Positions 27,368 to 52,224 of a DNA stretch of 64,000 nucleotides are shown piece by piece (the first letter of the stretch is position 1; every line of letters begins with the position of its first letter). The notes under the pieces are model-generated. The model did not search any database and had not been told where the DNA came from. It was given only the letters and a program-made list of their open reading frames with translations. Source of the stretch: Ustilago trichophora (Eukaryota > Basidiomycota > Ustilaginomycetes > Ustilaginales > Ustilaginaceae). Both the position numbers and the translations under genes were made by a program. The DNA is taken from positions 558,001 through 622,000 of the forward strand of contig OOIN01000005.1 in assembly GCA_900323505.1 (NCBI GenBank). The letters are read 5' to 3'.

Positions 27368-28696
27368 TTGATGATGGTGAAGAGGATGTGCTCAGCGAGT
27401 GAGGAAAGGGTGAATTCGGTTAGAGCGAGACCTTTCTTCCTTTTCCGAAAATTGTTGGTGCATCTCATACGCACGAAATCGGGCAATTCTTCAATTTGAA
27501 TGTCAAACTATATGAATCTGACAACGTGAAAAGCTCGAATAATTGCTCCTCATAGTGATGTCGTCGAGAACGCAGTCACTGGTCAGGCACAACACACAAG
27601 CCTCGGCAAGCAGTTGTTGTACAGCAGCACATGTTTGTGACCGTGTTGCTGCTTCTACTGCTTTTGCTGCTTATTCACTGCTGCACGGAAAAGTAAACTG
27701 TACCGTACGATCCCACGAGATCGGCAGTTACTGACTTTGCACGAAAAGGGGGTTAAAGCGAAGAAGCAGCTGCCCACTACGTAAACCTGCGTTGCGCAAA
27801 AAAATCAAAATTAAAATACAATACAAAAAATAAGCGTCACACAGTCGCCGTGCCTTCTCTTGGCGCTTACAGTAGGTATAATAATTCTTTATTTATTTAT
27901 TGACCTTATTTGTTTTGCAGACCACACACATCATCCGAGACAGAGAGAAAGAGAGAAGGCAGCTCTGATTTGACGGATGACACAAGACCGAATGTCGACT
28001 GACGGTTGTGAGAATTTCATTGCGAATGAGGCCCCTTTTGGCCAACAACGGTGCTTTCTCAGGAACGACGTGGGTAAGGTGGATCAAGTTAGCTCGGAAC
28101 GGCGTGTACGACCGAGTGTGTGGAGGAGCAAAGTGGAAGGAAGAAGAGTACAGTACTGTACTGTACTGTACATGTGCTCAGATCATCCTTTGTGCACTCT
28201 GCTCTCTGTCCTGAGTCATGATTGTGACATGTCATGCTCCGCTGCGCTGGGTTACAAAACACCACGCGTGAATAAGACTCGCTTCTCCAAGTTTTCCTAG
28301 ACGAGCGAGATGAAGAGCAGATCACTACTCAGCACAAAGCAGAGACAAGACAAGAGAGAGTAAATGCAAATGTGCGTGTGATGACGACTAACAATGTGGA
28401 CCCTGTCCCTCTCTAAGCTGTCTCTAAGCTGTCTCTTCTGAGTCTGTCTTGTCGCTTGCTTGTTTGAGCTGCTTCCTACTTCTTATCCACCATCAACCTA
28501 CTTTCGGCTTCGGAACTTGACGCCTTCTTTTTGCCTTTGAGCCATCTCGTTCGGCTATCAATACCCCGGCTCAGTGGGTCCGAACATCGGTATCCCACCT
28601 TTTCAACAGGAAGCTGGCTCTTTCCCCCCTCGACACGCATTCAATGACATAGCAACCTTTTCAAGCACCACGGCACATTGTTCATTTCCGCACACC
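27275..28696. other. Divergent promoter region, PAM18 / OGT
   Basis: About 1.4 kb. It contains a (GA)n microsatellite at about 27335-27362, a palindromic TACAGTACTGTACTGTACTG tract near 28149-28171, and AT-rich segments near 27800-27900. No gene seen. Confidence 0.5.
28644..28652 (+). promoter_or_regulatory. Minimal upstream open reading frame before OGT
   Basis: ATGACATAG lies 45 bp before the OGT start codon, in another frame. If it is in the mRNA leader it is a two-codon uORF that could lower translation of the main frame. Transcription start is unknown. Confidence 0.4.
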
Positions 28697-34600: not shown

Positions 34601-35044
34601 ATCATCCCACCTCCACCTCCCCCCCCTGCACCAGCCCCAACCGGCGTCTCCCTCGCCGAAGCAGCCAAACATCGTGACACCACCACCGCCACCGACCCCT
34701 CGCTTTTATCCTCCATCCCCGCACGGCATCTCATCCCCCTTGCCGCCTCCCCTTCATACCCTGGTGCGGTGACTCGCCGTTCTACCGCCAACTCAGAGTT
34801 GGGAAATTTGAGAAAAAAACTCTTCCTCACGCGCGAAATTCAAAGCACGCTCTTCAACACCAAACAGTGGACAAGAGATTTAGAAAAAGGTTATACAGAA
34901 GCTTGGCAAAGGTGGGTGCTAGGAGTGGATGTGGAGGATTCAGCCGAGACAGAAGCGTTGGAGGAGGAGGGGGAGCAAGTTGGGCTAAAAGCGTTGCGCA
35001 AGAGGGTGCGCGAGAGCGGACATATCTGGGTCAAAGATCTATAA
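28697..35044 (+). CDS. OGT: O-GlcNAc transferase homologue (TPR + GT41), very large
   Basis: A 2115-residue protein from ATG 28697 (MPNLPPSSFGSDASS); the frame is open slightly upstream but has no earlier ATG. OGT moves GlcNAc from UDP-GlcNAc to Ser/Thr of nuclear and cytosolic proteins. The N-terminal third is Ser/Ala/Pro-rich and probably disordered. Tetratricopeptide repeats appear at about 735-825 and again at about 1155-1245 (YTNLGSLLKDLGHLNEAIKM, VALANLGNAIKDQGRTQDS). The catalytic GT41 region starts near 1470 with KINVGYVSSDFNNHPLAHLM, then NLNGYTKGARNEIFAARPCP, LADFNQLYKCDPMLFKLWLR (Lys equivalent to the catalytic Lys of human OGT), ILWLLRFPAAGE and LFLDTTECNAHTTAADILWS. The C-terminus adds a poly-Pro, Ser-rich tail. 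It is about twice the length of human OGT and has no intron. Confidence 0.92.
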   Translation: MPNLPPSSFGSDASSSASYRRGSEQLATPHLAAAQNAISPRRASLGNVMPTGSANDMLRAASAMAAQASSGAQGLQAVSSALLNQAKAQASAAALGFQDAPTANAVDPQSTPMARNWSDSAGYSAAMSAHIASTIQNQMVKPAHPAAAQLPPSSTAPISAAIDPQASLPHSEDPEVQMGRIAAQAAAREAQTQWRTQLALRSSARTDVATAQAPAAFTSSAHPTSSSINSASTSGPDTGPLPTQNGPNTQNTAATGTTDMSVTEYLRYLGLSHIEMPSQGIEQSYGRASTSSSRYWDATNPHMGFSLSGVPSMPLMPNPPLQMLPPPASPSFRRKQSRGRSWIRHPSSASVSSTDSGDTSNDFEPNVMSPFPYPFQVVQTPGGTARAGWWVPVSEVPPEKRAKAVKIGDEPSTTSAFAFPNVSKLESVPEGSAAAEDADDDEEGQLLFQPTYRDFTKDEYSTLATAAAYATAALTSIASTPGGTSQSSSWRPLTASEQEAIANQLRAWAGLEGPHAQAEARKALEQRQIHLINQAIHRDLPTPRDSDKNKIADDDFGQLRRPEEAARFFPPDFASHYRTQLQALAEGYYTRLHNENLAQAHYAQPAAKERRIDTEPSDRQDAQHLGATGPAAYKDANKTPTSKPAQGTVPSVEGFGGMEPPVHTPTLRPGARDPVELLSAASNAAGHDVSSPEVRDQLLQYAHGLYTQGPPQADASAKGLDKLHPTLLPLLHTLHKLHPNHLPTLLLLSCAYYAADNYAGSLWYNNLILRIDPNYVESMSNIGTTLRALGRYQEAESWWWRAVRLRPGYWDAYENLLGVMCATNPPPTAGKANGAQEAPPSQPRFKEALQLCEHVESHVVGQQNALGTALPLYLPPNMPLTQTPRLQNLFYAKGNLKFVLPELGAVPAAAEYQKAVEVVLSPDEARRYSLRDLVVATCAVGLLSMGAMLPGTAAAAAALEVAVAMGINPTNPEHAAYLASGAFHHFCPGGILALVKLSGDVIVSTLLRLGNGQLPMLLLLPEAATQLCKVIFAETAGGLPALARSPASSKSQNLATLQQAQKQAAQTTSTILLTLAKLFQDATASPIAGPHGPLTLGGIPPSISLLLPLYYLSISMHASASTCNNLGILLSSIPVVTTVINAAGQPQQLNGQALAMQYYTQGLQLDPKHPHIYTNLGSLLKDLGHLNEAIKMYQKAVECNPNFDVALANLGNAIKDQGRTQDSVIYYRRAVQVNPHFPEALCGLVNALLAVCDWTEVYTDKRAKDQGSQSTGGKESSDSTSSPGGWMVNVSELVSKQLRDGCQYGAGAFQTAGRLEEWVQAIITSMGDTRPAAVQIWTQRLQPFYQPGFDRVANQVCEGGYLIQLIERMMRRSQRRWYVDAYGASVLHTDTELPRVTAAQTSAASYARPKLPSCLVTPAVPTVLPFHTFTYPLSPRQIRLICHRNALRISQSTLTQMWVPDVVYPPPSPPAPKINVGYVSSDFNNHPLAHLMQSVFGFHDLSRFNVFLYATTPSDGSPYRQKIEREAQHFLDVSAWSNQQVVERIVMDNIHVLMNLNGYTKGARNEIFAARPCPVQMEFMGFAGSMASRWTDWVVADPIVCPPEMTCVDRWRYQKQAAAASGTVLQQRPTDMLADIDPEEDSEEWVYPDRFIYMPHSYFVNDHKQGFREPNPSAETLQLAATTTVQPAGTTSPQLTEDQLWASEEMKRYAMRRELFPTLPDDYVILADFNQLYKCDPMLFKLWLRILQRVPKSILWLLRFPAAGEHHLLREARRYAGDKVASRVIFTDVAPKHIHIHRGRIADLFLDTTECNAHTTAADILWSATPVLTWPRHAHKMCSRVAASIVHATGFGEEMTVHGEQEYEDRAVQLAESCSYVYYDEEGEVVDAMLEEEGKGKVRYASDLEADPASVAAQPHGSAAGSGGLLKNSSATGQEGISRSTSSPTKTSQESFAAHPSSTSTKRTRSQSIIPPPPPPPAPAPTGVSLAEAAKHRDTTTATDPSLLSSIPARHLIPLAASPSYPGAVTRRSTANSELGNLRKKLFLTREIQSTLFNTKQWTRDLEKGYTEAWQRWVLGVDVEDSAETEALEEEGEQVGLKALRKRVRESGHIWVKDL

Positions 35045-36194: not shown

Positions 36195-36502
36195 GCTGAT
36201 GCTTAGATTCAAGGAGAACAGGAGGTAAGCATTGATTTCATTTGCTCCTTCTTTGATCTTTGCCACTGACAGTCTTCCAACCTTGCATCTTCTCCTCAGC
36301 TCCTCTGAACAGTGTATTTGGCGAAAACTTTCTCTCCCATTCGACGTTCAACTCCTTTACCTAGAAGTAGCTGGATCCGTCCTGTGTCAAAGGAAAAATT
36401 CTGGTTTGCGCGGTTGTAGCTACACATCTTTAATCTCGCACAAAAGTCGTTCCCTGACTGTTCGCTCTTTCATCAGTCACTCAATCAATCACATTCTCAT
36501 TC
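36195..36502. other. Intergenic, left flank of the large transposon
   Basis: About 310 bp between the stop of Cys4 copy A and the transposon. No gene seen. Confidence 0.55.
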
Positions 36503-36506
36503 ATAT

Positions 36507-36551
36507 CGTAAGAAAAGGAAGGAGCCGGCCTCGGAGCCACCTACCGAGCCA
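36507..36551 (+). repeat. Left terminal inverted repeat (45 bp) of the large transposon
   Basis: Identical over 45 bp to the reverse complement of 48277-48321. It contains several GAGCC/GGAGCC cores that recur in the subterminal arrays. Confidence 0.95.
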
Positions 36552-36597
36552 CCATGGCTGGCTCCGGGATGTCTCCAATGAGGAGACAACCACTGAA

Positions 36598-36793
36598 GGT
36601 GGCTGCTGAAGTGGCTCTGCGGCCGACTCTTGAGGTTGGTGGCTCCTTTGGATGGCTCCTCGCCGCAGACATCCAGCGAAGGTGGCTTCTGTGGTGGCTC
36701 TGCGGCCGGCTCCTGAGCAAGGTGGCTCTATCGGTTGGCTCCTTGTTGCAGACATCCGGCGAGGGTGGCTCCTATGGTGGCTCCGTGACCTGA
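36598..36793 (+). repeat. Left subterminal array, 83-bp tandem repeats
   Basis: Units 36598-36680 and 36681-36763 plus a partial third from 36764. Each unit begins GGTGGCT, contains a second GTGGCTCTGCGGCCG block and a CGCAGACATCC-like (or TGCAGACATCC) block. The units differ at about one base in six. The GTGGCT core occurs at least eight times in 200 bp. Confidence 0.85.
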
Positions 36794-37030
36794 GACATGT
36801 AAGATACTTCGATTGCGCAGACACACAAACCATCATCTGTTGAACAAGTACGATTCAATTACGAAGCACGGAGAGAGGCGGGCGTTGAGTATGAGAAACT
36901 GTCCAATGCCGAGTGTAGGAACGTCCGATGTGCCATGTAGTCGTGATTGTGTCAGCAAGCAGTCCAATCTTGAGAGAGCCGCAGAACAAGGATTGAGACA
37001 GTACTCACATGCAGCAGTCTTGTCTGGTCC

Positions 37031-37345
37031 CTAGTCCACGTGGTGTCGTTGCTGAACTACGAGCGAGACGTTGTAGCCTCCAAACACGGGATGGCTGACA
37101 AGCGCACCAATGTATGGGGTTGGTAGGATCGCATCCGACGGGTGTATGGACACCGCAATGCCAAACCAGCTTGGAACGTGTACGAAACCGACCGTAGGAG
37201 GGTAGAGATTGTGCGTGAACTTGAGCTCCTTCCAAAACTTGTCGACCTGAGTGCAGAGGGCCTGCCAAAAGGCCTTGGCGACGTGCTTGGCAACGGTGGC
37301 CGGGTAGTTGGGCTGCGCAACAACGTGCGTTGGCAGGATAGCCTG
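37031..37345 (-). CDS. Candidate short coding segment inside the transposon
   Basis: A frame ending at 37031 reads as a plausible protein from about 37345: HVVAQPNYPATVAKHVAKAF, WQALCTQVDKFWKELKFTH, then VGFVHVPSWFGIAVSIHPS and ALVSHPVFGGYNVSLVVQQR. It has a natural amino-acid mix, unlike the repeat-derived frame upstream of it. It has no clear own start, and a GTGAGT donor-like site lies just beyond. It may be a 3' exon of the transposase gene, a third transposon gene, or chance. Not recognised. Confidence 0.35.
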   Translation of the reverse strand, partial: QAILPTHVVAQPNYPATVAKHVAKAFWQALCTQVDKFWKELKFTHNLYPPTVGFVHVPSWFGIAVSIHPSDAILPTPYIGALVSHPVFGGYNVSLVVQQRHHVD

Positions 37346-37412
37346 GCGCCGGCGCCTGAGTCCGTAGAGAGGGATTGCTGGCATCATGTAATGGTGAGGG
37401 CGAGGGCGAGGG

Positions 37413-37766
37413 CGAGCGCAGTTGAGTCGAGGAGAAGAGCGCTCGAGTCGAGAGAAGGAAGGTCGACCTGGTGAAGAGCGCTTGACGAGGAGAAGAGCGC
37501 TCAAGTTGAAGTGGTGATGAGCGCTTGTCGAGGAGAAGAGCGCTTGAGGCCAGAGAAGAAGAGCGCACAAGTCGAAGTGGTGATGAGCGCTTGATGAGAT
37601 GATGAGCGCACGAGTCAAAGTGATGATGAGCGTGCGAATCAAAGTAGTGATGAGCGCTTGATGAGGAGAAGAGCGCTTGTGTGTGAGAGGAGATGAGCGC
37701 GCATATCGAAGTGGTGATGAGCGCTTGAAAAAAAGAAGAGCGCTTGTGTGTGAGAGGATACGAGCG
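37413..37766 (+). repeat. GAGCGC short-repeat array next to the transposase 3' end
   Basis: About fifteen GAGCGC cores, most as GATGAGCGCTTG or AGAAGAGCGCTTG, spaced 18-25 bp apart (with one wider gap where a GAGCGT variant sits at 37628). Many extend to the self-complementary AGCGCT. It resembles a cluster of protein-binding sites more than a strict tandem repeat. Confidence 0.8.
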
Positions 37767-37955
37767 CGTGACGAGGAGAAGAAGCTCTGATGGTCCAGAA
37801 CAAGGCCTAAGATGTGTCGGAGAGGACGAAGAAAGCCGCAGAAGATGCGGAAACGACACAGTGCAGAGAAATCCAATAGGGTTGAGCTCGTCGAGGGCTT
37901 CATCTCGGCAATTGAACGCGTGATGGTTTCAAATTGGCTTCAAGCCAAGCAGTTG

Positions 37956-40900
37956 TCATCCAGAGGCAGAGAAGGGCACCACTGCGAGCTGCAAGTCGAA
38001 GCTCTCCAAGTCAATGACCAGTTCCTCACCGTCATCGTACCCACTGTCAACCGCCAAACGAATGCCCATGTCTCGTATCAGATCCAGGCAGGGATGTCGA
38101 CGTCCTAGCACGTCCAGAGAGACCTCACGCAGCAGGCGGATGTGCAGGAAGCACTGCTTGGTGGTGTCAAGTGCCGTAGGAGAGTCTCGGACCATCTTGG
38201 AGAAGATCCAGAGGATCTTTGCTGGCCGAAGCACACCATCAAGTGACACCAGGCACCAGCAGTTAGTCTTGTTTTCGCGACCGCCTTGTCCGACACCGCC
38301 AACCTTGACAGCACCATGACCTCTATCCAGTGTCGCAGTTCGGATGAACTCGGCACTTTTGTCGAGGCGTACGACATTGATGGGGGCCGTAGAGTCCCAG
38401 AAAGGTGTGAAGCGCAATGCCACAGGGTTGGTACTGGCAGCTGAGGTTGGGAGGGCAGCGCTTGCCAGGGGGGCCTCGGCTGAGGCAGGAGTGCGACGAT
38501 TGAGGTGGCTGAGGAGGAGCTCGAAGGTCTCGTTCTCCATGAACCTCTTCTTCAACCGGGTGTTCAACGTTGAGGGATCGGAGACATGCAGACCCTCAAC
38601 TGATGCCAGCAGCCTTATCTTGAAGAAAGGCTCGTTGCTGGCTGCAAGCAGACGGCGAAGCCCCAATCTCTGTGTGCAATTGCGCATAATCGTCGACTCT
38701 AGCATACCTCCCTTGTGCCCACTGGTGGGGATGGTGCCCATGATCCCGTTGTAGCGCTCGAAAGGCAGCGAAGAGAAGTGTCGAGGAGATCCAAAGCGTC
38801 GGACAAATAACGGGAGGTGGGTGACATTGTGATTGTTGAACGTTAGCCATCCTGGTCCTAGGAGCTGGCTTTGGCTACGATTGTACCTGTTGATGTACTT
38901 GTCAAGCCTGTCCAACTCGTCACCATCGAGATCGCCATTGACAAGATCTACAATGCTGCAGAGCAGCATAGCCGACCGGAAGACCTTTCTCACTCGCTTG
39001 TTGCCAGGCAGAAGCGGTCGCAAGCCCGCGTTATCAGCAGCTCGAGGTCCAGTAGTGCCTTCATCAGCGTCGATGTCTAGAGTGACATCGGCATCTCCAC
39101 CTGGTTGAGCGTAATCTGTGCCTCCACGCGTGAAGAGCGAGAAGGTGAGCTTCTCGTTGTTGTTGCCAGAGAGAGAGGTGGTCCAGAGCTGCATCAACAC
39201 GAAAGGCAGCAGTACTCTGAACAGCACATCCCACTGCTCTGCTGTGGGGTTGCCGCCACTCTTGCTGCCAATCTGCTTGTTCGGACCTTGGACACTGGTT
39301 GGGAGCAAGGCGTTTGCGATAACAGACTGTGCTTCCGGCAATCGCTTCCCAATATCGTTGCAATGTTCAATCAGGAAGCGATGCCAGAAGCGTTTGCATA
39401 AGCCGAGGTGAACGGCGTGCATAATGTCTGGTGGGCAGCTATCGACAGCATTGAAGTAGGGTAATCTGTCGATAGCTACCGGTCGGAAGCCTGCCGCCGT
39501 CCGTGTCTCCATGGTCCTGCGATGCATCCTGCCAATCATGCTACCGCCTTCGTCCTCCACATCCGTCAAGCCAAGCTTCTCACCTTGCTTCGGGCAGTAA
39601 GCGCAGATGGTGCCCTTCTTGTACTTGAGGGCAAATCCAGCAACTTTTGCCCGAGCAGGTGTGTTGGCAACAACCATATTGAGTCGTGCCTTGATGAGCT
39701 CGCCTTCAGGATGGCCATGGGTCTTGAGGACCTTGCCACGAAGATCGAATTCCAGAAGCTCGTCGACGATGAGCGTGAGGAAGCTCTGCAATCTTGCAGC
39801 CGACGACTCCCTTGGGCCAGGCAGCAGACCAACAAGATGTGTGCCGAGGCAGCGCCGGTCGTGAGTCGTTAGTTGGGCTGGCAAGTTGTCGATTCTGAGC
39901 AGTATTGCTCCCGTGGAATGCCATTCGTGGAACTTGCCCTTTTGCGGGCCGAACCAGTCCACCAATAGCGTGACCTTGAGATTAAGGCCGGCGGCGACGA
40001 AAGGGGTGTGATCGTGGTGGCATTGACCTCGACAGTCTTCTGCACCGTGGTCGCAGTCCTCCAGCCAAGCTGACCCAGTTACGACCTCGTTGTAGCGCCG
40101 TCGATGAGTAACGGTCCTTGGGCGAGCAACACCATGTCGGTTTATAGGGTCAGCTGGAGGATGATTGGGGGCGGTGGCGTTGGAGGCATCCATTGGGGCA
40201 GACGCTTCTTCGAGCACAAGCATCCAATCCTTCAATGATCCGTAGTATTTGGGATCCATCAGCACATCGCAAAAGATCGATTCGAGCTTGCGATGGCAGT
40301 AGAGTTGGATCGGACGCTGGCTGTGGTCGTGAAGGAGCTTAGCCTCGCAAGAACAATGAACCTGTCGAGGCCTATGAGGTTCAACATCAGCCCACAGCGT
40401 CAGCTCGCCACAATCGGGACAAACCAGGTATTGATCGAAGTCACTCTGCAAGCCAAGTCTCTGTCGTACCGATGCAGGGGTAACTAGCATCGACAGAGGA
40501 GGAGGCGGCAACGGTGCAGGCTGAGACGACGACAACACCGCCCCTGTTCCATGTGTAGGATCGGTAGCAGAGCATGAGGAGCCAGAAAGCGGCTGCGACA
40601 ATGACGCAAGCTCACTTTGAGGTGGTGGCGACGGTGGCGGCAGTTGTGATGTTGACAGCGTCGAAGAAGAAGATGAAGCTCCAGGAGCACCGACTGTGGA
40701 AGCAGTTGTTTCCGGGTTGACGGCAAAAGGGCTGAATCGACTCAACACATGCAATGCAAAAAAGAGATAGAGCGTTGCTATCGTGTTGGAGAGCCCATGG
40801 AAGGTCATGAGGTACATCACGAAGATGTAGTTGACCATCACAAAACGACTGCGCTGCATCAGCAGAGGGTCATTGATGGCTTCTTCCATGGTCTGTTGGT

Positions 40901-41495
40901 CGATGTCAGCCACCATGCTTGTAGAAGGGTCGAGGAGGGATGCTCGTGCAAGCGCGAGACGACTAGCCTGTGAAGGAGAGGCTGCATCGGTCTCAATTGC
41001 GCCATCACTCGCATTGTCGTTGCTGTCAATGCTCGAGACCTCAGTAGGCAAGTCAGGAAAGGGAGGCAGAGTGTCGCTGGTGTCGCTTTCGCTGTCATCT
41101 GCGTCCCGATCTGGATCCGAAGTGTCAACAGCATGTGCGCGCAAAGTAGGTAGAGCAACGTGGTCTTCACTGTCGCCAGAGGCAGAAAGATTGCCCTCGA
41201 GGCGCCGTCTCTTTCTTCTCTCTCCTTCAGAGCAGTTGTCTCGACGCGAGCGCCCAACTTGAGAGAGGAAATATTCGACGGGCGAGGCAAACAATGTTGC
41301 TGTTGCTGTTGCTGAGGTCGCACCTTGAGAGCCCGGCCTGTACGGAGACAGCTGCCCTGGGACACGACTGTGTTGTCTCTGGCTCTCATGCCACCGCCAC
41401 TGCTTGTATGTGAAAAGCCGGCCAGTCTCGCCACATTCTTCGCACTTGCAAAGCCTGGGCTTGTGGCCCGACCGAGTAGGCGTCAGACTGCTCAT
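37956..41495 (-). CDS. Tnp2/CMC-like transposase of the large transposon
   Basis: An uninterrupted 1179-residue frame from ATG 41495 (MSSLTPTRSGHKPRLCKCEE). Near the start, C18, C21, H36 and H42 make a C2H2-like zinc motif, followed by a nuclear signal ERRKRRRLE at 92-100. A mid-protein Cys cluster reads LVCPDCGELTLWADVEPHR and VHCSCEAKLL. The presumed catalytic core holds LKVTLLVDWFGPQKGKFHEW, FALKYKKGTICAYCPKQGEK, VDSCPPDIMHAVHLGLCKRF and SLPFERYNGIMGTIPTSGHK. The D-x-M-H-x(4)-G and F-E-R-x-N-G patterns are those of fungal Tnp2-type transposases. The acids in VDWF, PPDIMH and FERYNG are candidates for the DDE triad, by analogy only. The intact frame and matching termini suggest an autonomous copy. 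Exact superfamily needs a profile search. Confidence 0.78.
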   Translation of the reverse strand: MSSLTPTRSGHKPRLCKCEECGETGRLFTYKQWRWHESQRQHSRVPGQLSPYRPGSQGATSATATATLFASPVEYFLSQVGRSRRDNCSEGERRKRRRLEGNLSASGDSEDHVALPTLRAHAVDTSDPDRDADDSESDTSDTLPPFPDLPTEVSSIDSNDNASDGAIETDAASPSQASRLALARASLLDPSTSMVADIDQQTMEEAINDPLLMQRSRFVMVNYIFVMYLMTFHGLSNTIATLYLFFALHVLSRFSPFAVNPETTASTVGAPGASSSSSTLSTSQLPPPSPPPQSELASLSQPLSGSSCSATDPTHGTGAVLSSSQPAPLPPPPLSMLVTPASVRQRLGLQSDFDQYLVCPDCGELTLWADVEPHRPRQVHCSCEAKLLHDHSQRPIQLYCHRKLESIFCDVLMDPKYYGSLKDWMLVLEEASAPMDASNATAPNHPPADPINRHGVARPRTVTHRRRYNEVVTGSAWLEDCDHGAEDCRGQCHHDHTPFVAAGLNLKVTLLVDWFGPQKGKFHEWHSTGAILLRIDNLPAQLTTHDRRCLGTHLVGLLPGPRESSAARLQSFLTLIVDELLEFDLRGKVLKTHGHPEGELIKARLNMVVANTPARAKVAGFALKYKKGTICAYCPKQGEKLGLTDVEDEGGSMIGRMHRRTMETRTAAGFRPVAIDRLPYFNAVDSCPPDIMHAVHLGLCKRFWHRFLIEHCNDIGKRLPEAQSVIANALLPTSVQGPNKQIGSKSGGNPTAEQWDVLFRVLLPFVLMQLWTTSLSGNNNEKLTFSLFTRGGTDYAQPGGDADVTLDIDADEGTTGPRAADNAGLRPLLPGNKRVRKVFRSAMLLCSIVDLVNGDLDGDELDRLDKYINRYNRSQSQLLGPGWLTFNNHNVTHLPLFVRRFGSPRHFSSLPFERYNGIMGTIPTSGHKGGMLESTIMRNCTQRLGLRRLLAASNEPFFKIRLLASVEGLHVSDPSTLNTRLKKRFMENETFELLLSHLNRRTPASAEAPLASAALPTSAASTNPVALRFTPFWDSTAPINVVRLDKSAEFIRTATLDRGHGAVKVGGVGQGGRENKTNCWCLVSLDGVLRPAKILWIFSKMVRDSPTALDTTKQCFLHIRLLREVSLDVLGRRHPCLDLIRDMGIRLAVDSGYDDGEELVIDLESFDLQLAVVPFSASG

Positions 41496-43387
41496 GGCAG
41501 ACCAATTAAGTTGGGAGAGACGAGGGTGAGAGTGAGCTTGAGTGGCGGCAGCGACAGCAACAGAAAGAAGAGCAGAGAGATGACGAGACAGCAGTCGGAG
41601 GGTTGGCAGCAATTGCTAGACCGGGTCACTGGGCACACGACAACACCTGGCAAGCCAATGAACAAAACCAACGGACTTGCAGCCAAAGGAGAGCAAGGTG
41701 CAGAGAAAGTCCGTCGAGAAGAGATATTGTCCGTGGCTGCCAGCCCAAGGAATCTCAGCCAGCTCTAGGAAGGAAGACTAGCGCCAAACTTTGAGACTTG
41801 GGCCGTGGTGAGAGCGTCGTGACCGGAAGGCGGAGTAGCGAGTCGTCCAAAGGCCTGATAGAAAGCAAACGAAGGAAGATGGCAACGACGTGACTGGACT
41901 TGAGCAAGAGACACCAATGCAAGGCATCACAAAAGTGACTTTTGCAGAGGTGCTGCCTCAGACGGTCAATCAACGCCAGTTGGTCTCCGACGTCGCTGAC
42001 ACGGGTGCCCACACCTTCTGGGTCCGTGTAGTTGTGCTGCCCGCAGAAACAAGAAACAAGAACCAAGCCAGAGAGCGACCAACTCTCCTGGCAGCGGGGC
42101 CCCGGCGGATTGGGGTTGTCGGTCTACGACCAGGACATGCACCTGCCAATCGTAGATGTCTTTAACGTCTGGGATCAAATCAGACGGTGGCTGTTGAGGG
42201 GCCTCAAGGGAGCCACGGCCACACGAGTGTAGCAACCAAGGTCTTTAATGTCCGGTCAGTGAAGACGGTGGATCCTTGGAGTGCCCTCGAGAGGCTGGTT
42301 AGCCAAGAAGATCCGTTGCGAAGTTGATACCAAAGGCGCCGCCCAGAGTACCCGCCAAGGTACACTCACCTTATTTGGCTGCCACACGGGTAGGGTGTTC
42401 TTCTGTCTACAAGAGACGAGCGGCAAGGAACCCCGGGGCCGGCCTCACCGACCCAGGAAGGCTCACCCTTACGAACATGTACACCGCCGCCAGGTTTGTG
42501 TTCTTGACGGGCCACGGGGGTGGGCTAACCTCCAGCCTCGAACAGCGCAAAGATTGGGCCAGATAAAGCGGGAGGATACGCTGCTGCGCGTTGTTGAGCT
42601 GTGACACCGATGTTGAAAGGCCTGGGCAGGCAAAGCGAAGGATGTAGAAGGCCAGAAGATGAAGACAGGCGAGACGAGTAGAAGAGCTCAAAGGGCGAAA
42701 TCGATGGAGAGGAGCGGAAGTCGAGAGCAAAAGTCGAGGATGAAGTTGAACCACAAGTCGTCGATGAAGCTGGCCGATTTAGAAGAGACAAGGGGAGGGA
42801 TCTTGATGGTAGAGCCACAAGCGGCGGCAAGGAAGCATGCGCAGCGGTAAGAAGCATGTCACTGCGTTGGAAAGTGCGAGAAGGTGCCAAATCGCGGGGA
42901 ATGATGGTGAGGGGTCGTAAAGGTCTTGACGAGACGCTGAAGAGTGGATTGACGAGGTCAGCGTGGAGAAGATGCTTGAGCTAGGTCAAAAGAGAGAGTA
43001 ATGGTGGTGGTTAGTATGATAGCGAGTTTGGCCGAGTCGTTGATGCTGCGCAAATTTGGCCGAGTCGTTGATGCTGCGCAAATTTGGCTGAGTCGTTGAT
43101 TAGCGATTTGACTGATTAAATTTAATTACCTTATCAGTGTTAGATCGCAGAGTCCTGCTGCGCATTACTTTCACCGTTGTTTGTGAGAGCGTGCTACCTT
43201 CACGACCACATCAATCCTTCAATCCTCAAGATCGACTCGAGCAACTTTTGACACTCATTAGCCAGGAAACGAGGACAAACAAGGTATTCGGATCATATTC
43301 CAACAAGAACGACTCAAACTACAGCAGAGATACTCGGACTACAGCAGATACTCGGCTACGAGGCCACCGACATTGTGGCCAATTCAA
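41496..43387. other. Transposon interior between the two genes
   Basis: About 1.9 kb with only small overlapping frames. It should hold the transposase promoter and leader. The one clear structure is the 28-bp repeat at 43024-43100. Confidence 0.5.
43024..43100 (+). repeat. 28-bp tandem repeat, about 2.7 copies
   Basis: Unit AAATTTGGCCGAGTCGTTGA plus TGCTGCGC, seen from about 43024, at 43052 and partly at 43080. The last copy has one change (GGCTGAG) and then diverges. It lies in the region beyond the stop of the accessory gene. Confidence 0.85.
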
Positions 43388-45154
43388 TCAACGACGACGA
43401 TGGGCTGGTGCAAGATGATTGCTGGGTCCAGCCTCGGAGAAGACCTCTTCTCCTTGACCAGAGCGACTGGATGACTGGAAGGTGTTTTCATCGCTACCCT
43501 CGTCGTTGCTCGAAGGGAAGAACATGGGTCGATCGTTGTCCCGTTGCAGTTGACTGGCTTGGTAGACTCGGTATGGGGGGTGTTGACCCCATTGGTTTGC
43601 ATCGCGAATGGGAGAGTCAGGGTGGTCTCCGATTCTGGTATTGCGAGATACATTGCGAACCACATCAGGGAACAGCCGGGAGAACTCTTCGCTGACCATC
43701 CACCTCTGGATAGAGGTTGGTAGAGGGTCGATGCTGGCACCGACGGATGGGTATTCGACTCGCAAAGGGTCGAGTCTTGTTCGCGTCCGCACAGGAGGCA
43801 AAGGCTGACTTGCTATCTCTGCTTGTCTTTTGTCGTCGAGTCTCTGCAGAGCGTCATGGAGCTCTAGCGATTGCCAGCTGGGAACCAGCTTGCGTAGTGG
43901 GAGCTGCTGGTTCCGACGGCCTCGACTTGTTCCACCTTCTCGGTCATTTCCACTATTGCCAACATCGCCAGCACCACTGGCACTGGCGAGACGTTCCGCA
44001 CGACCTGTTTCTGTCTGGCTCCGTTGTGGCTCCAATCCCGATTCTTTGCTCTGCTCGGCGTCTGTGACCTCGACACTGGCTGCTGCCAGCAAGGCAAAGT
44101 CAGTGTTGTGGTACTTACGCTTGAGTTCAGTGTCGCGAGCAAGGAGAGCAGCCCGAGCGTCGCTTTTCTTCTTCGCTCGGCTCTTCCTTCGACGGCGACT
44201 GTCTCTTCTCTCTCTCCGAGCTGGATCAGCAGCATCACCTTGCTGCTCTCTCCAACTCTTGAACAAGCGAGAGAGGGATTGCATACAAAGTCTCTGGCCT
44301 TGATCCCTGCCCCCAATTGCTTGGACGTGGTCGTGCACTGATGGATTTCGGCTGATCAGCTCACCCAAGATGTCCTTAACCAGGTCCTTGTAGTGGGATG
44401 TCGGCTTTGACCAGTCAAAGCGCAGGACTGGAGTGCCATGGAGGGTTGGAGCAGGGTCTTCGAAGGGAGGCAATGGATCTGAAGAACAGAGACCCATTCG
44501 ATGGCGAAGCTCGTCTTTGAAGGGGATCTGCAAGGGCAGATGATGCTTAGGACCACCGCCTCCCTTGTGGGGTGTGTCGAGGAAGGGCAGTGGAGGCCTT
44601 GTAGTCGTCGCGCCGGCAAGTACTGCAGGAGGATGGAGACGTTGTAGGGTCTCATCAAGCCAGTGAAGCGAGCAAACGATCCCTTCGCGATCGTCGCGAA
44701 GGTCTTCGAAGTTCTGCTGGAGCTGGTGATATTGTTGGCGGAGTTGGCGGCACTCTTCTTCAAGCGCCGCTACGTCTTGACCCTGAGGTTGAGCCCGGAC
44801 AGCCGCATCGCGCTCATCTTGGGGAAGATCATTGGGAGTTTTGTGCTGATGCACAGAGGAGATGTTGTCGGGTACGTTTTGGCTTTGACTGCGTTGGCTG
44901 CCATGGCAGGACACAGAGCTCAAGAGGGTCAATGGCGAACGAGAGCGGTCAATGGGATGACTTGTTGGAATTTGGTCGCTGTATGCTGAGCTCAATGGCG
45001 AGCTTGCAAAGTAAGAGATTGGATCGACGCTACCTTGCTCCAACCCAGTCTCATTGGCCACTTCGAGAGTTGGTGTTGCCGGTCGTCGACGTTTGCCGGC
45101 ACCACCCATCGTCTGGCTGGCTCGTTTTCCTTTGCGTTTTGTCCTGCCTGCCAT
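43388..45154 (-). CDS. Second transposon gene: basic coiled-coil protein (TnpA-like by position)
   Basis: A 588-residue frame without breaks from ATG 45154 (MAGRTKRKGKRASQTMGGAG). The N-terminus is highly basic (RTKRKGKR, KRRRPATP), fitting nuclear entry or DNA binding. A Ser/Pro-rich stretch follows, then a coiled coil at about 128-160 (AALEEECRQLRQQYHQLQQN), a central more ordered part (HYKDLVKDILGELISRNPSV), a strongly basic segment RRERRDSRRRRKSRAKKKSD near 315, and an acidic/Ser-rich tail. No transposase motif. In plant En/Spm a second gene (tnpA) makes the protein that binds the subterminal repeats; the location here inside the same terminal repeats suggests the same job, but there is no sequence evidence of homology. 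It reads on the same strand as the transposase, about 1.9 kb upstream. Confidence 0.65.
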   Translation of the reverse strand: MAGRTKRKGKRASQTMGGAGKRRRPATPTLEVANETGLEQGSVDPISYFASSPLSSAYSDQIPTSHPIDRSRSPLTLLSSVSCHGSQRSQSQNVPDNISSVHQHKTPNDLPQDERDAAVRAQPQGQDVAALEEECRQLRQQYHQLQQNFEDLRDDREGIVCSLHWLDETLQRLHPPAVLAGATTTRPPLPFLDTPHKGGGGPKHHLPLQIPFKDELRHRMGLCSSDPLPPFEDPAPTLHGTPVLRFDWSKPTSHYKDLVKDILGELISRNPSVHDHVQAIGGRDQGQRLCMQSLSRLFKSWREQQGDAADPARRERRDSRRRRKSRAKKKSDARAALLARDTELKRKYHNTDFALLAAASVEVTDAEQSKESGLEPQRSQTETGRAERLASASGAGDVGNSGNDREGGTSRGRRNQQLPLRKLVPSWQSLELHDALQRLDDKRQAEIASQPLPPVRTRTRLDPLRVEYPSVGASIDPLPTSIQRWMVSEEFSRLFPDVVRNVSRNTRIGDHPDSPIRDANQWGQHPPYRVYQASQLQRDNDRPMFFPSSNDEGSDENTFQSSSRSGQGEEVFSEAGPSNHLAPAHRRR

Positions 45155-45867
45155 CTTGACATGGGTTCATCTCAATGGATTGCGGCAACAGTGGTAGCTA
45201 CAAAGAAGGAAGGCCGTTTGGCAGGTCTCAGAGACTTTGTCGAGTCAGAGACCTGATCGAGTCTCACCACACTCGTAGACACTGGTCTGATACCGAGATG
45301 ACCATGGATGGCACTTGGCAGATGGCTCTCTGCGCTCCTCTGATGACAAGGCACGACATCGAGACATCTCAAGTGCTCAAGTCGTTGACAATTGACTGAT
45401 GGAGCGCACTCGGGTGACATCTCTGCACAGTTCCGATCAGAAGTGGTACGTACTCCGTTATCTACATTGCCTGCAAACCCATCCAAAGCGTTGCAATGGC
45501 GCAACAACGGCTCGACAACAACGTCAAGTAACCCAGCCTTGGTGAGTCAGCATCATGTTGAGCTCAGGCACTTTGCCGTGTCTCCTCGAGCATTGAGGCG
45601 GGCTGATCTGCGTGGAAGGAGGCCCAAGCGCAGGAAGCGGATGGGATAAAAATTTGCAGACGCGCAGAACCAGCCTTTGTCTCTTTCTTCATTACTTCAA
45701 CCATCCCACCAGCCATTTTCGCCACCGCCATCAATCTCGACCTGTCACTGTCTCCCTGATCGCCCTCGCTTTGCTTGGCTTGCTTGCGATTGGCCTGACA
45801 GCAGCATGGTCTTGTTGGCATTGGTTCAATTGGACTTGCATCGACATTCGCCGTGCTGCGCCGCGTG

Positions 45868-45942
45868 GCAATGACGACGACGACGACGACAACGACAACG
45901 ACGACGACAACGACGACGACGACGACAACGACGACGACAACG
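45868..45942 (+). repeat. (GAC)n trinucleotide microsatellite
   Basis: Repeated ACGACG with AAC interruptions, giving poly-Asp/Asn on one strand and poly-Val/Ser on the other. Any frame through it is an artefact. Confidence 0.9.
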
Positions 45943-46324
45943 CCGGGCATCAAGAGGCGTTCGTATTGCTGATTCTCTCCTCGGAATTGCGCTTGGCCAT
46001 CAAGAAAGCGCGCTTCATTTGTCTTTGTTCACGCCTCTCATTGAATGCCTCTCGTTGATCCAATCACGGCGCTGCACCTTGGCCTTGCAGGCTTGGATCG
46101 CTCTTGCTTGGTTTTGTCACAGCTCCTTTCCCATTCCATCTCATGCTGCTGCCATACGGTCACTTGGAGTCTTGTCTGCCTGGCTTTCTTGCTCGTCGCC
46201 GACTTACAAGGTCGTGCGATTGAGTATAGGCTAGGCGATGTGGCAATGGCGACTTGACTGGCACCTTCCAACCCTCCTCCTCCCCTCGGCCACGGAGTCC
46301 TTGAGAGCTCCTTTTGCTGACGGA

Positions 46325-46413
46325 GAGCTGCTCGAGCCTAGCTCGAGACTTGACCTAGCTTGTTATCGTCCTGACGAAGCCTAGGTTAAGCTCGAGCTAG
46401 GCTTGAGCAGCTC
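46325..46413. repeat. Long inverted repeat (hairpin) inside the transposon
   Basis: Arms 46325-46358 and 46381-46413 pair over about 33 bp with two mismatches and one bulge; the loop is 22 bp. The left arm starts GAGCTGCTCGAGCCTAGCTC. Weaker pairing (CGGAGTC near 46294-46300 and GACTCCG near 46415-46421) continues outside with an internal interruption. Confidence 0.9.
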
Positions 46414-47997
46414 TGACTCCGTCGTGATCAGCCTCTTGACAACATGTGCTGCTTTCACCATCCCTGCTGTTCCTTTCCATTCCAGCGCGGCAGTTGCTCT
46501 CCCAACTTGACAAGCTTGTCAAGTCGGGAGCCAATATGCTCGCCTCTGCATTTGCAACTGGAGGAGAGAGATGCGAGATCGTTGTTTCCGCACTCGTCGT
46601 TTCCGCATTCTCCCTTGGGATATATATTCCCCTCCAACATCGACCTCGCCTCCTTCTTGACCAACATCATCTCCAGCACCTCCACCTTTGTCTCTCGATC
46701 AAGACACACGCAACACATCCCTCAATCACACAACGTCGCCGTCCTCTTCCATCAACATGCCAAACCAGCTGATCTTTGGCGCTATCTTCTTTGTGCCTAC
46801 GCCTATGCCTGCGACCGTGGCAGCCGTACTCTCGATGCATTTGTTCAGGACCTGGTCAATTAATGTGCTGGTAGCACACCGGTATGGCATTGTGCAGGTT
46901 GGGTTTGGACCCCGATACCTGCGACTGGATGTCGAGACTCCTCTCTTGGGCCACTGGTTCCTGACTTGGGCTAGCTAGCAACTTTGCTGGCGTTTGGTGT
47001 TGTGGCTTGGCTTTGCCTGGCGTCGAGTCTGTCGTTGCTGTCTCTCGATGCTCACTTGTCGAGTCCATCGATGATGGGCAACACAACATTCCGGGCTCTG
47101 CCAATGTCTGGTAAAAGCTCTGATCTGGCTATCATTGCTCGCACAACACACACTCTGAGGCTTGGCCTCGACCTGTGAGCATCGGTTGGCACTTTGACCC
47201 TTGCTCGGACTGATACAACATCCCCTCTGCCCCCTGCAACCTCTCCTCTTCGACTTCTTTGGCTTGGTCTTTTTACGTTACATTTGTCGCAGTTGGCCTC
47301 TTTGCATCAAGCTCCCAGTTCATGGCGCCCATAAGCATGATGACCCTTGGCTTGGCTCTAGTCCGACTCGCTCAACATCGGCTTCAATATCTCCACTTTT
47401 GAGCGCTTCTACAGACGTTGTTGACGCGGGTTTCAGCTGTTGCATTCATTGCTGTTGTCTCGCTTGAGAGCGGTACTGACGATCAGGCTCTTCTTCAACT
47501 TCAATGGTGTTAACGTAGTCTTGGCATTCACGCGTACGACGACGGTTCACATACGATGATCATCTATACTGCGGCCCTTGCCAACAACAAACCAACTGAA
47601 TGTGGACTTGCTCAACGCGCGCCTCCCAGCCTCTGTCAATGCAATTCGCTCGACTCGGTACGATACTGGAACTAGACCTTTGGATTGGTTTCTCTTCACA
47701 AGTAAGTGACATGCTGGTTCGACTCTTGGCTCAATGCTTGTCTCCGCGCAACGTTGTCTAACACCTGTGCCTTGACCTTCTCTTCCTTCCTTTGCGCTCT
47801 CACTCTCACCAACATCTCACACCGACATCTCACCCTCCGCCATCTCCAACATCACCAACTTTGCCGTTTGCACCGCTGGCATCGACTGGATGCCCTCAAT
47901 ATCACGCAGACACACGAATGCAACAATTTAGACCATATTTGATTGAACGTGGGATGCTGAGCGTGTGTGGGCAGCTGGCCGGCTGAAAGATCAAGGT

Positions 47998-48209
47998 GGC
48001 TCCTCGCCAGAGCCACCTGAAGGAGACACCCTAGCTGGCTCTGGCGAGGAGCCACCTGAAGGAGACACCCTAGCTGGCTCCTCGCCAGAGCCACCTGAAG
48101 GAGACACCCTAGCTGGCTCTGGCGAGGAGCCACCTGAAGGAGACACCCTAGCTGGCTCCTCGCCAGAGCCACCTGAAGGAGACACCCTAGCTGGCTCTGG
48201 CGAGGAGCC
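47998..48209 (+). repeat. Right subterminal array: 39-bp units with alternating inverted 17-bp block
   Basis: Five 39-bp units and a sixth block. Each unit is a 17-bp block plus a constant 22-bp spacer (ACCTGAAGGAGACACCCTAG then CT). The block is GGCTCCTCGCCAGAGCC in units 1, 3 and 5 and its exact reverse complement, GGCTCTGGCGAGGAGCC, in 2, 4 and 6. The blocks start at 47998, 48037, 48076, 48115, 48154 and 48193. Because 39 is a multiple of three, open frames run through both strands, but they are not coding. Confidence 0.97.
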
Positions 48210-48276
48210 ACCCTTTGAAGAGCCATCCGATCGGGGGTGGCTCTATGGGTGGCTCCTAGGTTGGAGCCAACCTGGC

Positions 48277-48321
48277 TGGCTCGGTAGGTGGCTCCGAGGC
48301 CGGCTCCTTCCTTTTCTTACG
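48277..48321 (-). repeat. Right terminal inverted repeat (45 bp) of the large transposon
   Basis: Reverse complement identical to 36507-36551. It is followed by ATAT (48322-48325). Confidence 0.95.
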
Positions 48322-48325
48322 ATAT

Positions 48326-48621
48326 GATTGGCAATCATCCGCAAGTGAATAGTATGTCTGCTCAATCACAAAATGACACGGCATGCCTTCTGTAAGAAGA
48401 AAAGATGTGCTAGAGATTCTGCTTTTCAAATTAGTTTATCGAGAGCAATAAAGGATGGAACGTGGTTGTGTATGCGACCAGGGTCTGTTTGTGAGAGTGT
48501 TTGTGATGGAGGGCGAGATTTTGCCGATGAAAAGGGAAATTTTTCAATGACGCATACTTTTGACGAAGCAAAGCGATGACTGGAGAAGAGCTGATATTGA
48601 TCTTCTCTGCGTCTTGAATCT
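48326..48621. other. Right flank of the large transposon
   Basis: About 300 bp between the transposon and the stop codon of Cys4 copy B. No gene seen. Confidence 0.55.
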
Positions 48622-48951
48622 CTAATCACTGTCTTGACTGTCTTCAAATGAAGAAGCTGGGCGTTTTGCTCCAGCTCCAGCTCCAGCTCCTCCACTTGCA
48701 GTGGCAGGTACAGATGCAGATGTAGGTGCATGATTGATCGCGGTGCGAAGCTGATAAATAAAAGCCTGCACGTCTACCATTGCCTGCCTAAGCTCCTTTA
48801 CCTCCTTGTTGAGTTCTTGCAGGGATACACTTTTGGCCGGGTCGTTACTCAGACGTTCGGTAAAACACCACCAACAGAGCCCACTTCCCTGACGTGGGAA
48901 ATCTTTCTCCCAACACATCTTGTTGCAGCCATGGCAAAGTCGTTCTATCAT
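48622..48951 (-). CDS. Small Cys4 zinc-motif protein, copy B
   Basis: A 109-residue protein from ATG 48951 (MIERLCHGCNKMCWEKDFPR). C6, C9, C26 and C29 give C-x2-C-x16-C-x2-C with Phe18, the exact spacing of the protein at 35871-36194, where Phe is also the ninth residue after the second Cys. An extra Cys (C13) lies in the loop. The middle forms a heptad-like helix (VSLQELNKEVKELRQAMVDV), a likely dimerisation coil. The tail is Ala/Gly-rich and ends in an acidic SFEDSQDSD. No signal peptide. It points toward copy A across the transposon. A TATA-like box lies about 115 bp upstream. Function unknown. Confidence 0.68.
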   Translation of the reverse strand: MIERLCHGCNKMCWEKDFPRQGSGLCWWCFTERLSNDPAKSVSLQELNKEVKELRQAMVDVQAFIYQLRTAINHAPTSASVPATASGGAGAGAGAKRPASSFEDSQDSD

Positions 48952-49063
48952 CGTCCGTGCAAGGTTTGTTTCTTTGATTGGACAGGATAAGAGAGAGTGC
49001 TGTTGAGGATGTAGAGATGGGAAACGGCTTTTGCGGTCCTGTCAATGGGAGGTGCGCCTGTGG

Positions 49064-49069
49064 TATATA
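49064..49069 (-). promoter_or_regulatory. TATA-like box of Cys4 copy B
   Basis: TATATA lies 113-118 bp before the ATG at 48951 on the minus strand, comparable to the TATA position of copy A. Confidence 0.45.
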
Positions 49070-49109
49070 AGCTAGCTTGAGATACGCCGATGAAAATGGG
49101 CTTTGCTTT

Positions 49110-49113
<4 letters not shown>

Positions 49114-49186
<73 letters not shown>
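49114..49186 (+). repeat. (GA)n microsatellite, about 36 copies
   Basis: Unbroken AG/GA dinucleotides over 73 bp, upstream of Cys4 copy B. Confidence 0.97.
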
Positions 49187-49188
<2 letters not shown>

Positions 49189-49852
49189 CTTGTATGATCT
49201 CTTGGCGCCGATGTTTCATCATTTTCATCTTGGCCAAAGGTCGACCGATCCTCATCCAGACTAGATACATCAAGCCACAGCGAACGAGATGAAAGACCAA
49301 CGGCGCAAGCTTGAGCTTAAGCTGGAACAACATGTTGATTTGAGGCTGCCGGCCAAGCCTGGTGAAGATTCTCTCTACCTCAACGACAATTGAAAATCAC
49401 GCTTTTCAGCAACTTGTTGGTGCAATGTCACAAGGTTGCGAGGCGTCTCAATGCTGACAATGTGGATGGTTTTGAGCGTTTATTGGAGATTTACAAGGAT
49501 CTGGTTGCTAAGTGCGAAATTTGATAGTGAGATTGACATGAAGCAAATATATAGTATCGCAATACGTCTGGGCTTTTCCAGCACTGCATTTGCTTCAAGG
49601 TAGACACAAATAGCTCAACATGACACTGTTCGATCTCGAAACTGTTTTAGAAAAAAAAAAAAAATCCCTGTAGGATGGACTCAATGCTAGGTGAGGACGT
49701 TCGTCAAATGTTTCATCTCGGGATCTGTACTCCTGCCAAATCACTATGCACAGTATCCTTCAAGGCCGTCCATATCACGCTTCAAACGTCAAAATCGTCG
49801 CTGCTGAGATGAAATGGATTCAGATAATTGATTGTGAGTGCAACAATTGTAA

Positions 49853-51553: not shown

Positions 51554-52224
51554 GCTGGCTGCGAGGCGAGGGATTAGATTCGGTTGTCTTGAGAATTGAG
51601 GTAGGCGCGGTGCTGGTGATGGGAAGCGACTAAAGGTTCCAGAAATGCCGTTGGATGGTATTTGATCCCTCCTTTCACGCTGGTTATCGTGAGTCAAGAT
51701 GGTTAATGGAATGAGAAGAGAAGAGAAGTCGACAGGCCATTAGCAGCAAAGTACTTGTCCAAGCACAGCACCTGCTTTCCGAGATAGGAAGAGTTGAACC
51801 CTTGTTTCCAACTCCCAAAAACCGCTCTGTGCAGTGTTGGACTCGACGCGTCTCTTTGCGCTTCCATTCGTTTTTCTTCTTAACGCGCGAGAGAATAGAA
51901 TAGACGCTTCTGCTCAGATCTGCCTCTTACGGACTCGCATCTTCATCATAACAAGTTCCAATGTGGACAACAGCTTCCTTCAGCAGAAAGTTTCACACTC
52001 ACAAACAAGACTCCCAACGTATTCAGCGAGAGAGAAAGAGGTGGATTAGATCTTTTCGAAATTGATATAAAAGTAAACAAGCAAACGACACTGAAAAGGG
52101 GGGGGCATTTTCTACAGGAGGTCAAGCTCTAAGCTCTCCCGTCACATCTGCGGGGAGAGAGGCGTGAAGAGAGCTTTGAAGCCAATTCCGACGAGGTATG
52201 GTCCGCTTTAAAGGAGCAGCCAAT
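51554..52224. other. Intergenic, CIT1 3' end and WD40 promoter
   Basis: About 670 bp between the citrate synthase stop and the WD40 start codon, both on the minus strand. No gene seen. Confidence 0.55.

What the first reader, a model, noticed from the sequence alone, without database searches (positions are those of the whole stretch)
36507..48321. Complete 11.8-kb CMC-like transposon with two genes and subterminal arrays
The termini are 45-bp perfect inverted repeats flanked on both sides by ATAT. Inside are an uninterrupted 1179-residue Tnp2-like transposase, a second 588-residue basic coiled-coil protein, and repeat arrays at both ends built on GGTGGCTCC/GGAGCCACC, a core also present in the terminal repeats. 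This is the full plan of an autonomous En/Spm-type element, but the termini start CGTAAG rather than CACTA, so it may be a separate lineage. The perfect arms and open frames suggest recent movement.
Basis: partly seen in the sequence, partly recalled or inferred. Interest (0 to 1): 0.8.

Follow-up and report, generated by a model that had tools for sequence, protein, structure and literature searches.

The report
Smut-fungus cut-and-paste transposon, probably disabled
This is a real 11.8-kb jumping gene in a smut fungus, one of a multi-copy family related to plant CACTA elements, but its true ends lie 5 bases outside those first proposed and its transposase has lost a catalytic residue, so this copy probably cannot move itself.

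Summary
The element is real, but three claims need correcting. The genome is Ustilago trichophora, by named proteins on contigs of equal length. Of 30 copies tabulated, 24 keep both ends and 22 of those have identical 3-bp flanks, 20 of them ANT. The homologous locus on contig C8, between the same two neighbour ORFs, is empty with a single triplet. CA..TG ends, 3-bp duplications, a Tnp2-related transposase, C(2)C and H(3)H motifs and subterminal GGTGGCTCC arrays place it in or beside the CMC/EnSpm group; 'CACTA-less, so separate lineage' does not follow. The family has 16 better-preserved large copies, degraded ones and many short derivatives. A third conserved ORF was missed. The transposase frame is open, but the second catalytic Asp is Asn here and Asp in 15 of 15 other copies examined. 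The 99%-identical copy is broken differently; their differences are mostly CpG transitions, TCG-rich, a RIP-like signature. A hairpin-forming intergenic block is unexpectedly conserved. Autonomy of this copy is not supported.

The parts
36502..48326 (.). whole element, 11,825 bp
   Evidence: CATAT..ATATG ends shared by family copies; alignment with the C28 copy covers the element and not the flanks; empty homologous site
36499..36501 (+). target-site duplication ATT, left
48327..48329 (+). target-site duplication ATT, right
36502..36551 (+). left terminal inverted repeat, 50 bp perfect
48277..48326 (-). right terminal inverted repeat, 50 bp perfect
36520..36790 (.). left subterminal array on GGTGGCTCC, with imperfect 83-bp units
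47994..48300 (.). right subterminal array, 39-bp units on GGTGGCTCC
37956..41495 (-). transposase gene, 1179 aa; Asp513, Asn611 (Asp in 15 of 15 other copies examined), CxxC 631-634, HxxxH 889-893, Glu913
43388..45154 (-). second gene, 588 aa, pI 9.3; also found beside the transposase in 14 of the 15 other better-preserved large copies; proposed array-binding partner
37031..37387 (-). third conserved ORF, 118 aa, pI 9.8, function unknown
   Evidence: tblastn hits at the same place in several sister copies, dN/dS about 0.23-0.32; no hit in the C1 and C31 loci; no Pfam match
42054..42201 (.). intergenic block 95-97% identical to a sister subfamily; contains two possible hairpins at about 42122-42186

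Best explanation
A cut-and-paste DNA transposon of the CMC/EnSpm (CMCT) group. Inferred mechanism: the basic second protein binds the GGTGGCTCC arrays and pairs the two ends. The DDE transposase then cuts at CATAT..ATATG and inserts mostly at ANT triplets with a 3-bp stagger, giving the 3-bp duplication. Short internally deleted copies that keep both ends move in trans. Shown here: ends, duplication, empty site, family, co-occurrence of the genes, and purifying selection on three ORFs between subfamilies. Inferred: binding, pairing, catalysis and movement in trans. This copy is probably not autonomous, because the second catalytic Asp is Asn. Closely related copies differ mainly by CpG (TCG-rich) transitions.
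For: Ends and duplication: 22 of 24 copies with both ends intact have identical 3-bp flanks, 0 of 24 match over 4 bp; re-pairing flanks gave a mean of 6.1 and a maximum of 14 in 10,000 shuffles. Empty site: the joined flanks align without a gap across the junction to C8:567686-567931, where one triplet stands, between homologues of both neighbour ORFs in the same order and strand (83% and 92% identity). Family: 141 end-pattern hits against 2 for the reversed control; 16 better-preserved transposase copies; second gene upstream on the same strand in 15 of these 16. Transposase_21 over the curated cut-off in 3 of 5 named relatives and at 10 genomic places. D513, C(2)C, H(3)H and E913 kept in the copies that cover them. 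Selection: dN/dS 0.20-0.23 transposase, 0.17-0.32 second gene, 0.23-0.32 third ORF between subfamilies. Defect: Asn611 seen only here. Decay: 46 of 54 substitutions against the C28 copy are CpG transitions, although CpG makes up 1426 of 11,547 positions; 28 of the 46 are TCG against a 35% share of TCG among the element's CpG sites; in the host flanks 40 of 337.
Against: The window transposase scores 22.7 against a Transposase_21 cut-off of 28.6. Both AlphaFold models were poor (mean pLDDT 37 and 40), so the DDE fold is not confirmed by structure. No solved-structure match. dS exceeds 1 in the transposase and second-gene comparisons, so those ratios are rough; against the C28 copy the ratios are 0.64-2.5 on very few changes. 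Six of 30 copies lacked an intact end and were set aside; two of 24 have unequal flanks, one of them a full-length copy (C23). Of pairs read but not tabulated, one on C2 is equal (ATT/ATT), one on C2 is unequal (ATT/ACT), and the two C18 ends, if one element, are unequal (AAC/ATT). The C28 copy has an altered left end and no matching duplication. Residue 611 was not examined in at least three degraded copies.
Confidence: 0.87

Rival explanations
1. One reading: ends CGTAAG..CTTACG with a 4-bp ATAT duplication, an autonomous and separate lineage.
For: ATAT does stand on both sides; the frames are open.
Against: CATAT and ATATG are kept at both ends in 24 of 30 copies, and outside them stands a 3-bp duplication that varies between copies; the empty site has no ATAT. 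Asn611.
Confidence: 0.03
2. The element is a Plavaka-type transposon rather than EnSpm-type.
For: Plavaka is a fungal CMCT branch; PlavakaB starts CATCA and makes 2-3-bp duplications (PMC12730594, passage). P0002 has a sub-threshold Plavaka match, E 0.069.
Against: No Plavaka match for the window protein at E up to 1 and none in the genome (whose positive controls were silent, so it shows little). Termini read CATATC, not CATCA or TGT.
Confidence: 0.2
3. This copy is still active: Asn611 is a base-calling error or is tolerated.
For: The frame is otherwise open, and a sequencing error cannot be excluded without reads.
Against: An Asp-to-Asn change at the catalytic position is expected to abolish DDE chemistry (established knowledge of DDE enzymes, recalled). 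The difference from the C28 copy at this codon is a CpG transition, like the family-wide pattern. The transposase also ends about ten residues before the C-terminus of its relatives.
Confidence: 0.1
4. The CpG differences come from ordinary methyl-CpG deamination, not from a repeat-directed RIP-like process.
For: Four DNA-methylase-domain loci in this genome.
Against: TCG excess (28 of 46 against a 35% baseline, p 0.0002) resembles RIP-like patterns that I recall from other basidiomycetes. No methylation data; single-copy methylated DNA was not compared.
Confidence: 0.45

Closest known systems
CACTA/EnSpm elements of plants (maize En/Spm, soybean Tgmt*)
   Same: Tnp2-related transposase, 3-bp duplication, dense subterminal repeats, a second protein, non-autonomous deletion derivatives (plant features from passages of PMC2613891)
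   Different: Ends CATATC rather than CACTA; 50-bp perfect repeats against 13 bp in Tgmt*; the second protein has its own gene rather than a splice form; no significant Pfam match for it; third ORF
Fungal EnSpm and Plavaka elements of rusts and mushrooms (PMC12730594, passages)
   Different: No CAC or CATCA start; no significant Plavaka profile match; no TET/JBP domain among Pfam matches of the three ORFs scanned
Smut relatives: Sporisorium graminicola EX895_001529, S. scitamineum SPSC_03833, S. reilianum and Tilletia controversa proteins
   Same: Transposase homologues, 29-61% identity to the window protein in the alignment
   Different: Their flanks and ends could not be examined here
CpG depletion in Ustilago hordei and U. 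bromivora repeats (PMC5106213, passage)
   Same: CpG loss in repeats, suggested there as RIP
   Different: Here seen copy against copy, with TCG excess and a host-flank control

Membership tests
CMC/EnSpm (CMCT) | Tnp2-type (Transposase_21) transposase | tested here: met
   Over cut-off in 3 of 5 named relatives and 10 genomic places; window copy itself below cut-off, 22.7 against 28.6
CMC/EnSpm (CMCT) | C(2)C and H(3-4)H between second D and E | tested here: met
   CAYC 631-634, HNVTH 889-893, E913; kept in the copies that cover those stretches; residue numbers
CMC/EnSpm (CMCT) | complete catalytic D-D-E | tested here: not met
   Asn611 in this copy; Asp in 15 of 15 other copies examined and in 3 of 4 proteins of other species; the fourth (P0010) has an insertion there. 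The family meets it, this copy does not
CMC/EnSpm (CMCT) | CA..TG ends with 2-5-bp duplication | tested here: met
   CATAT..ATATG, 3 bp, 22 of 24 copies with both ends intact
CMC/EnSpm (CMCT) | position in a transposase tree with reference families | not tested
   No reference EnSpm or Plavaka sequences were at hand from a call
CACTA sensu stricto | ends start CACTA or CACTG | tested here: not met
   CATATCGTAAG
CACTA sensu stricto | subterminal repeat arrays at both ends | tested here: met
   10 of the 11 core motifs counted in the window lie in the two arrays
CACTA sensu stricto | second protein that binds the arrays | not testable with these tools
   Basic gene co-occurs in 15 of 16 better-preserved copies; binding not shown
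Plavaka | Plavaka profile PF18759 | tested here: not met
   No hit for the window protein at E up to 1; weak 0.069 in P0002
Plavaka | ends TGT (A) or CATCA (B) | tested here: not met
   CATATC; definitions from PMC12730594
KDZ (Zisupton) | 8-bp duplication | tested here: not met
   Duplication is 3 bp; 8 bp for Zisupton from PMC12730594
Autonomous element | intact transposase in this copy | tested here: not met
   Open frame but Asn611; activity itself not testable here

The most novel reading that the evidence does not exclude
The family is a distinct smut branch of the CMCT clade with three proteins and a conserved structured RNA (or hairpin DNA signal) between its two main genes. That block keeps 95-97% nucleotide identity to a sister subfamily and shows compensatory hairpin changes, where coding DNA has drifted to about 75%, and it also occurs at further sites with no transposase match. 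It would be a new regulatory part of a eukaryotic cut-and-paste transposon.
Probability: 0.25. Interest if true: 0.62.

Novelty: new variant of a known kind. Interest (0 to 1): 0.45.

Why it matters
It gives a fully bounded smut CMC-like family (ends, target, duplication, empty site), in which plant-style features (subterminal arrays plus a separate basic partner gene) occur in a fungus, so the array-binding model can be tested outside plants. It also catches CpG/TCG mutation of repeats copy by copy in a smut, including a change at a catalytic residue. A caution for annotation follows: a long open frame and perfect arms do not show that an element is active.

Tried and rejected
Structure prediction of the transposase, whole and core, gave mean pLDDT 37 and 40, so no fold search was run. 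Profile search of solved structures gave nothing. Rfam gave nothing over a gathering score in 41400-43500 and ARAGORN no tRNA in the window, so the intergenic block matches no family searched. A coding reading of that block (an open 92-aa minus frame) was rejected because the C41 and C23 copies carry a frame-changing indel in it. Folding energy of the 156-nt stretch is unremarkable on either strand (z -1.7 and -1.1). Only covariation and conservation speak for structure, and the covariation rests on 7 distinct arm pairs aligned by hand (43 of 49 cells paired; 0.5% of 20,000 re-dealings reach it); of seven sequences folded singly, L045a folds otherwise, and the reverse strand folds nearly as well in several, so strand is open. 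MAFFT's own alignment misplaced that stem. Gene conversion between subfamilies could also explain the block. One search was a script of mine with a wrong pattern that found nothing; one search is its corrected run. Papers: no description of this family appeared in the listings of searches or in the passages read; subscription papers are not held, so this does not show it is unpublished.
Full report
Host. Protein searches name close relatives on contigs of 744,150, 496,113, 635,986, 857,529 and 1,928,903 bases as Ustilago trichophora. The window's own genome has contigs of exactly these lengths, so the window is from U. trichophora.

Ends. A search with the first 60 bp of the reported left end gave 30 places in the genome. 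I fetched 23 stretches around them (two of them make up the C28 copy) and later 20 short stretches at the ends of other copies. tabulates 30 elements: the window, C28, 19 of the 21 other loci of the first set (L029 and L030 showed only one end), 5 full-length sister copies and 4 mini-elements. Six lacked CATAT or ATATG at one end and were set aside: C28, L021, L023, L026, L028 and L031. Of the 24 others, 22 have identical 3-bp flanks, 20 of these ANT; none matches over 4 bp. Re-pairing the flanks 10,000 times gave a mean of 6.1 and a maximum of 14. The exceptions are L025 (ATT/ATC) and the full-length C23 copy (AGT/ACT). Read but not tabulated: two neighbouring elements on C2 (ATT/ATT and ATT/ACT), two ends on C18 15.7 kb apart (AAC/ATT), and single ends on C1 and C4. 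ATAT is palindromic, which is why it looked like a duplication. The window element is therefore 36502-48326, with 50-bp perfect inverted repeats and an ATT duplication.

Empty site. The two flanks joined with one ATT match C8:567686-567931 continuously at 73% identity. The 60 columns around the junction have no gap: TCTC-ATT-GGCAATC here, TCTC-GTT-AGCAGTC there. The left neighbour ORF (28541-35044; its last 1347 aa were searched) has its homologue at C8:562712-566740 (92% identity) and the right neighbour ORF (49853-51739) at C8:569742-571454 (83%). So this is the same locus on a diverged homologous chromosome, without the element. The predicted TCATATGA is not there.

Family. Pattern CATATCGTAANAAAAGG with at most one mismatch: 141 hits, reversed control 2. 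The transposase matches 49 stretches, a lower bound. I count 16 better-preserved copies (C1, C4 twice, C5, C6, C8, C15, C18, C23, C27, C28, C31, C32, C34, C36:453k, C41) and at least three more in pieces (C36:61405-64959, C43:88150-92758, C4:1046833-1049260). The second protein lies upstream on the same strand in 15 of the 16 (all but C34), with weaker matches at C3 and C4:1045012-1046021. The 19 short copies tabulated span about 0.4-1 kb; in the three whose alignments I printed they keep the left ~240-290 bp and right ~115-160 bp of the element, and two of them also match a piece of the region upstream of the second gene. A copy at C28 is 99.1% identical over 11,595 aligned columns, with 93.5% over a further 216 in the right array, and unrelated flanks, so it arose by movement rather than by segmental duplication. 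Its transposase is split by stops and frame changes.

Proteins. The transposase has Asp513, CxxC at 631-634, HxxxH at 889-893 and Glu913. These fit the CMCT description of PMC12730594 (passages; its alignment figure was not seen). Read by eye, the second D is the only D between Asp513 and the CxxC shared by P0002-P0006, P0009 and the Tilletia protein. It is Asn611 in the window copy and Asp in 15 of 15 other copies examined (the degraded copies were not fetched). In proteins of other species it is Asp in three of four; the S. reilianum protein has an insertion there. The low-confidence AlphaFold model places Asp513 in a strand, residue 611 just after a strand and Glu913 in a helix, as in RNase H folds; at pLDDT 37 this is a hint only. 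The second protein is basic (pI 9.3) with a sub-threshold leucine-zipper match. A third ORF of 118 aa (pI 9.8) downstream of the transposase recurs at 68-84% identity in the C8, C27, C6, C15 and C18 copies, with a changed tail in C28 and at 38% over a part in C23 and C41; the fetched C1 and C31 loci, which reach 1.5 kb past the transposase, gave no hit. dN/dS between subfamilies is 0.17-0.32 for the three ORFs. Against the 99% copy the ratios are 0.64-2.5 on a handful of changes, which says nothing firm.

Decay. Between the window and C28 copies there are 52 transitions and 2 transversions; 46 transitions lie at CpG (one search counted 47 and 3 transversions on a slightly different alignment). 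28 of the 46 are TCG, against a 35% share of TCG among the element's CpG sites (binomial p 0.0002). Sister pairs, 17 compared, show the same in close pairs: L033 against L037 23 of 23, L035 against L036 50 of 51; more diverged pairs are less pure, such as L034 against L035 with 31 of 82. In the host flanks against the empty site 40 of 337 substitutions are CpG transitions. CpG observed/expected is 0.82 in the element, 0.90 and 0.92 in host DNA, 0.41 and 0.46 in two short copies. The genome has four DNA-methylase-domain loci. CpG depletion of repeats has been reported for U. hordei and U. bromivora (PMC5106213, passage). The change at codon 611, compared with the C28 copy, is of the same kind.

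Intergenic block. 42054-42201 is 95-97% identical to six copies of the C8 subfamily and 84% (over a longer, gapped stretch) to C41 and C23, although the transposase coding DNA against the C8 copy has a median of 75% per 148 columns and a maximum of 93%. Ten copies including this one carry it at the same place, with a shorter core at two further sites; the core was also found in the C18, C31, C32 and C4:98k copies, there twice in tandem. A 15-bp core has 29 genome hits against 4 in the reversed control. Aligned by hand, a 7-bp stem keeps 43 of 49 cells paired over 7 distinct arm pairs, with both sides changed at four of the seven pairs. A second hairpin follows it. This may be an RNA, a DNA signal or a gene-conversion tract.

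Verdict. A well-bounded CMC-like smut transposon family; this copy is probably not autonomous. Mechanistic steps beyond ends, duplication, empty site and conservation are inferred.

Noticed in passing
window 42054-42201; hairpins at about 42122-42186: Intergenic block with two possible hairpins, far more conserved between subfamilies than the coding DNA, present twice in tandem in some copies and also at sites without a transposase match.
   Followed up: partly
whole genome G000; C5 against C8, C32 against C38, C24 against C19: Some genes occur in pairs (83% and 92% identical for the two neighbour ORFs), and the assembly is 38.8 Mb while two other U. trichophora assemblies are about 20.7 Mb (passages of PMC5897528 and PMC8951962). 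It may hold two diverged subgenomes (hybrid, diploid or mixed culture).
   Followed up: partly
G000:C24:65006-65530 and C19:552348-552869; C32:29661-31105 and C38:435416-436854: DNA-methylase domains at four loci in two pairs, one pair in open frames of 2527 and 2545 aa, although U. maydis is reported to lack DNA methyltransferases (passages of PMC13297926 and PMC7862722).
   Followed up: no
G000:C26:57147-57221: A 75-bp palindromic mini-element made of the family ends, flanked by AAA on both sides rather than ANT.
   Followed up: no
P0010, Sporisorium reilianum: A diverged homologue labelled Ustilaginaceae-specific has an insertion where the second Asp should be; it could be a domesticated or decayed transposase.
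   Followed up: no
G000:C32:361556-376314: In this copy the second gene lies about 9.5 kb from the transposase, farther than in the other copies; perhaps a nested insertion.
   Followed up: no
window 48845-49396: Minus-strand frame with a long Ser-Leu dipeptide run (simple repeat) beside the right end.
   Followed up: no
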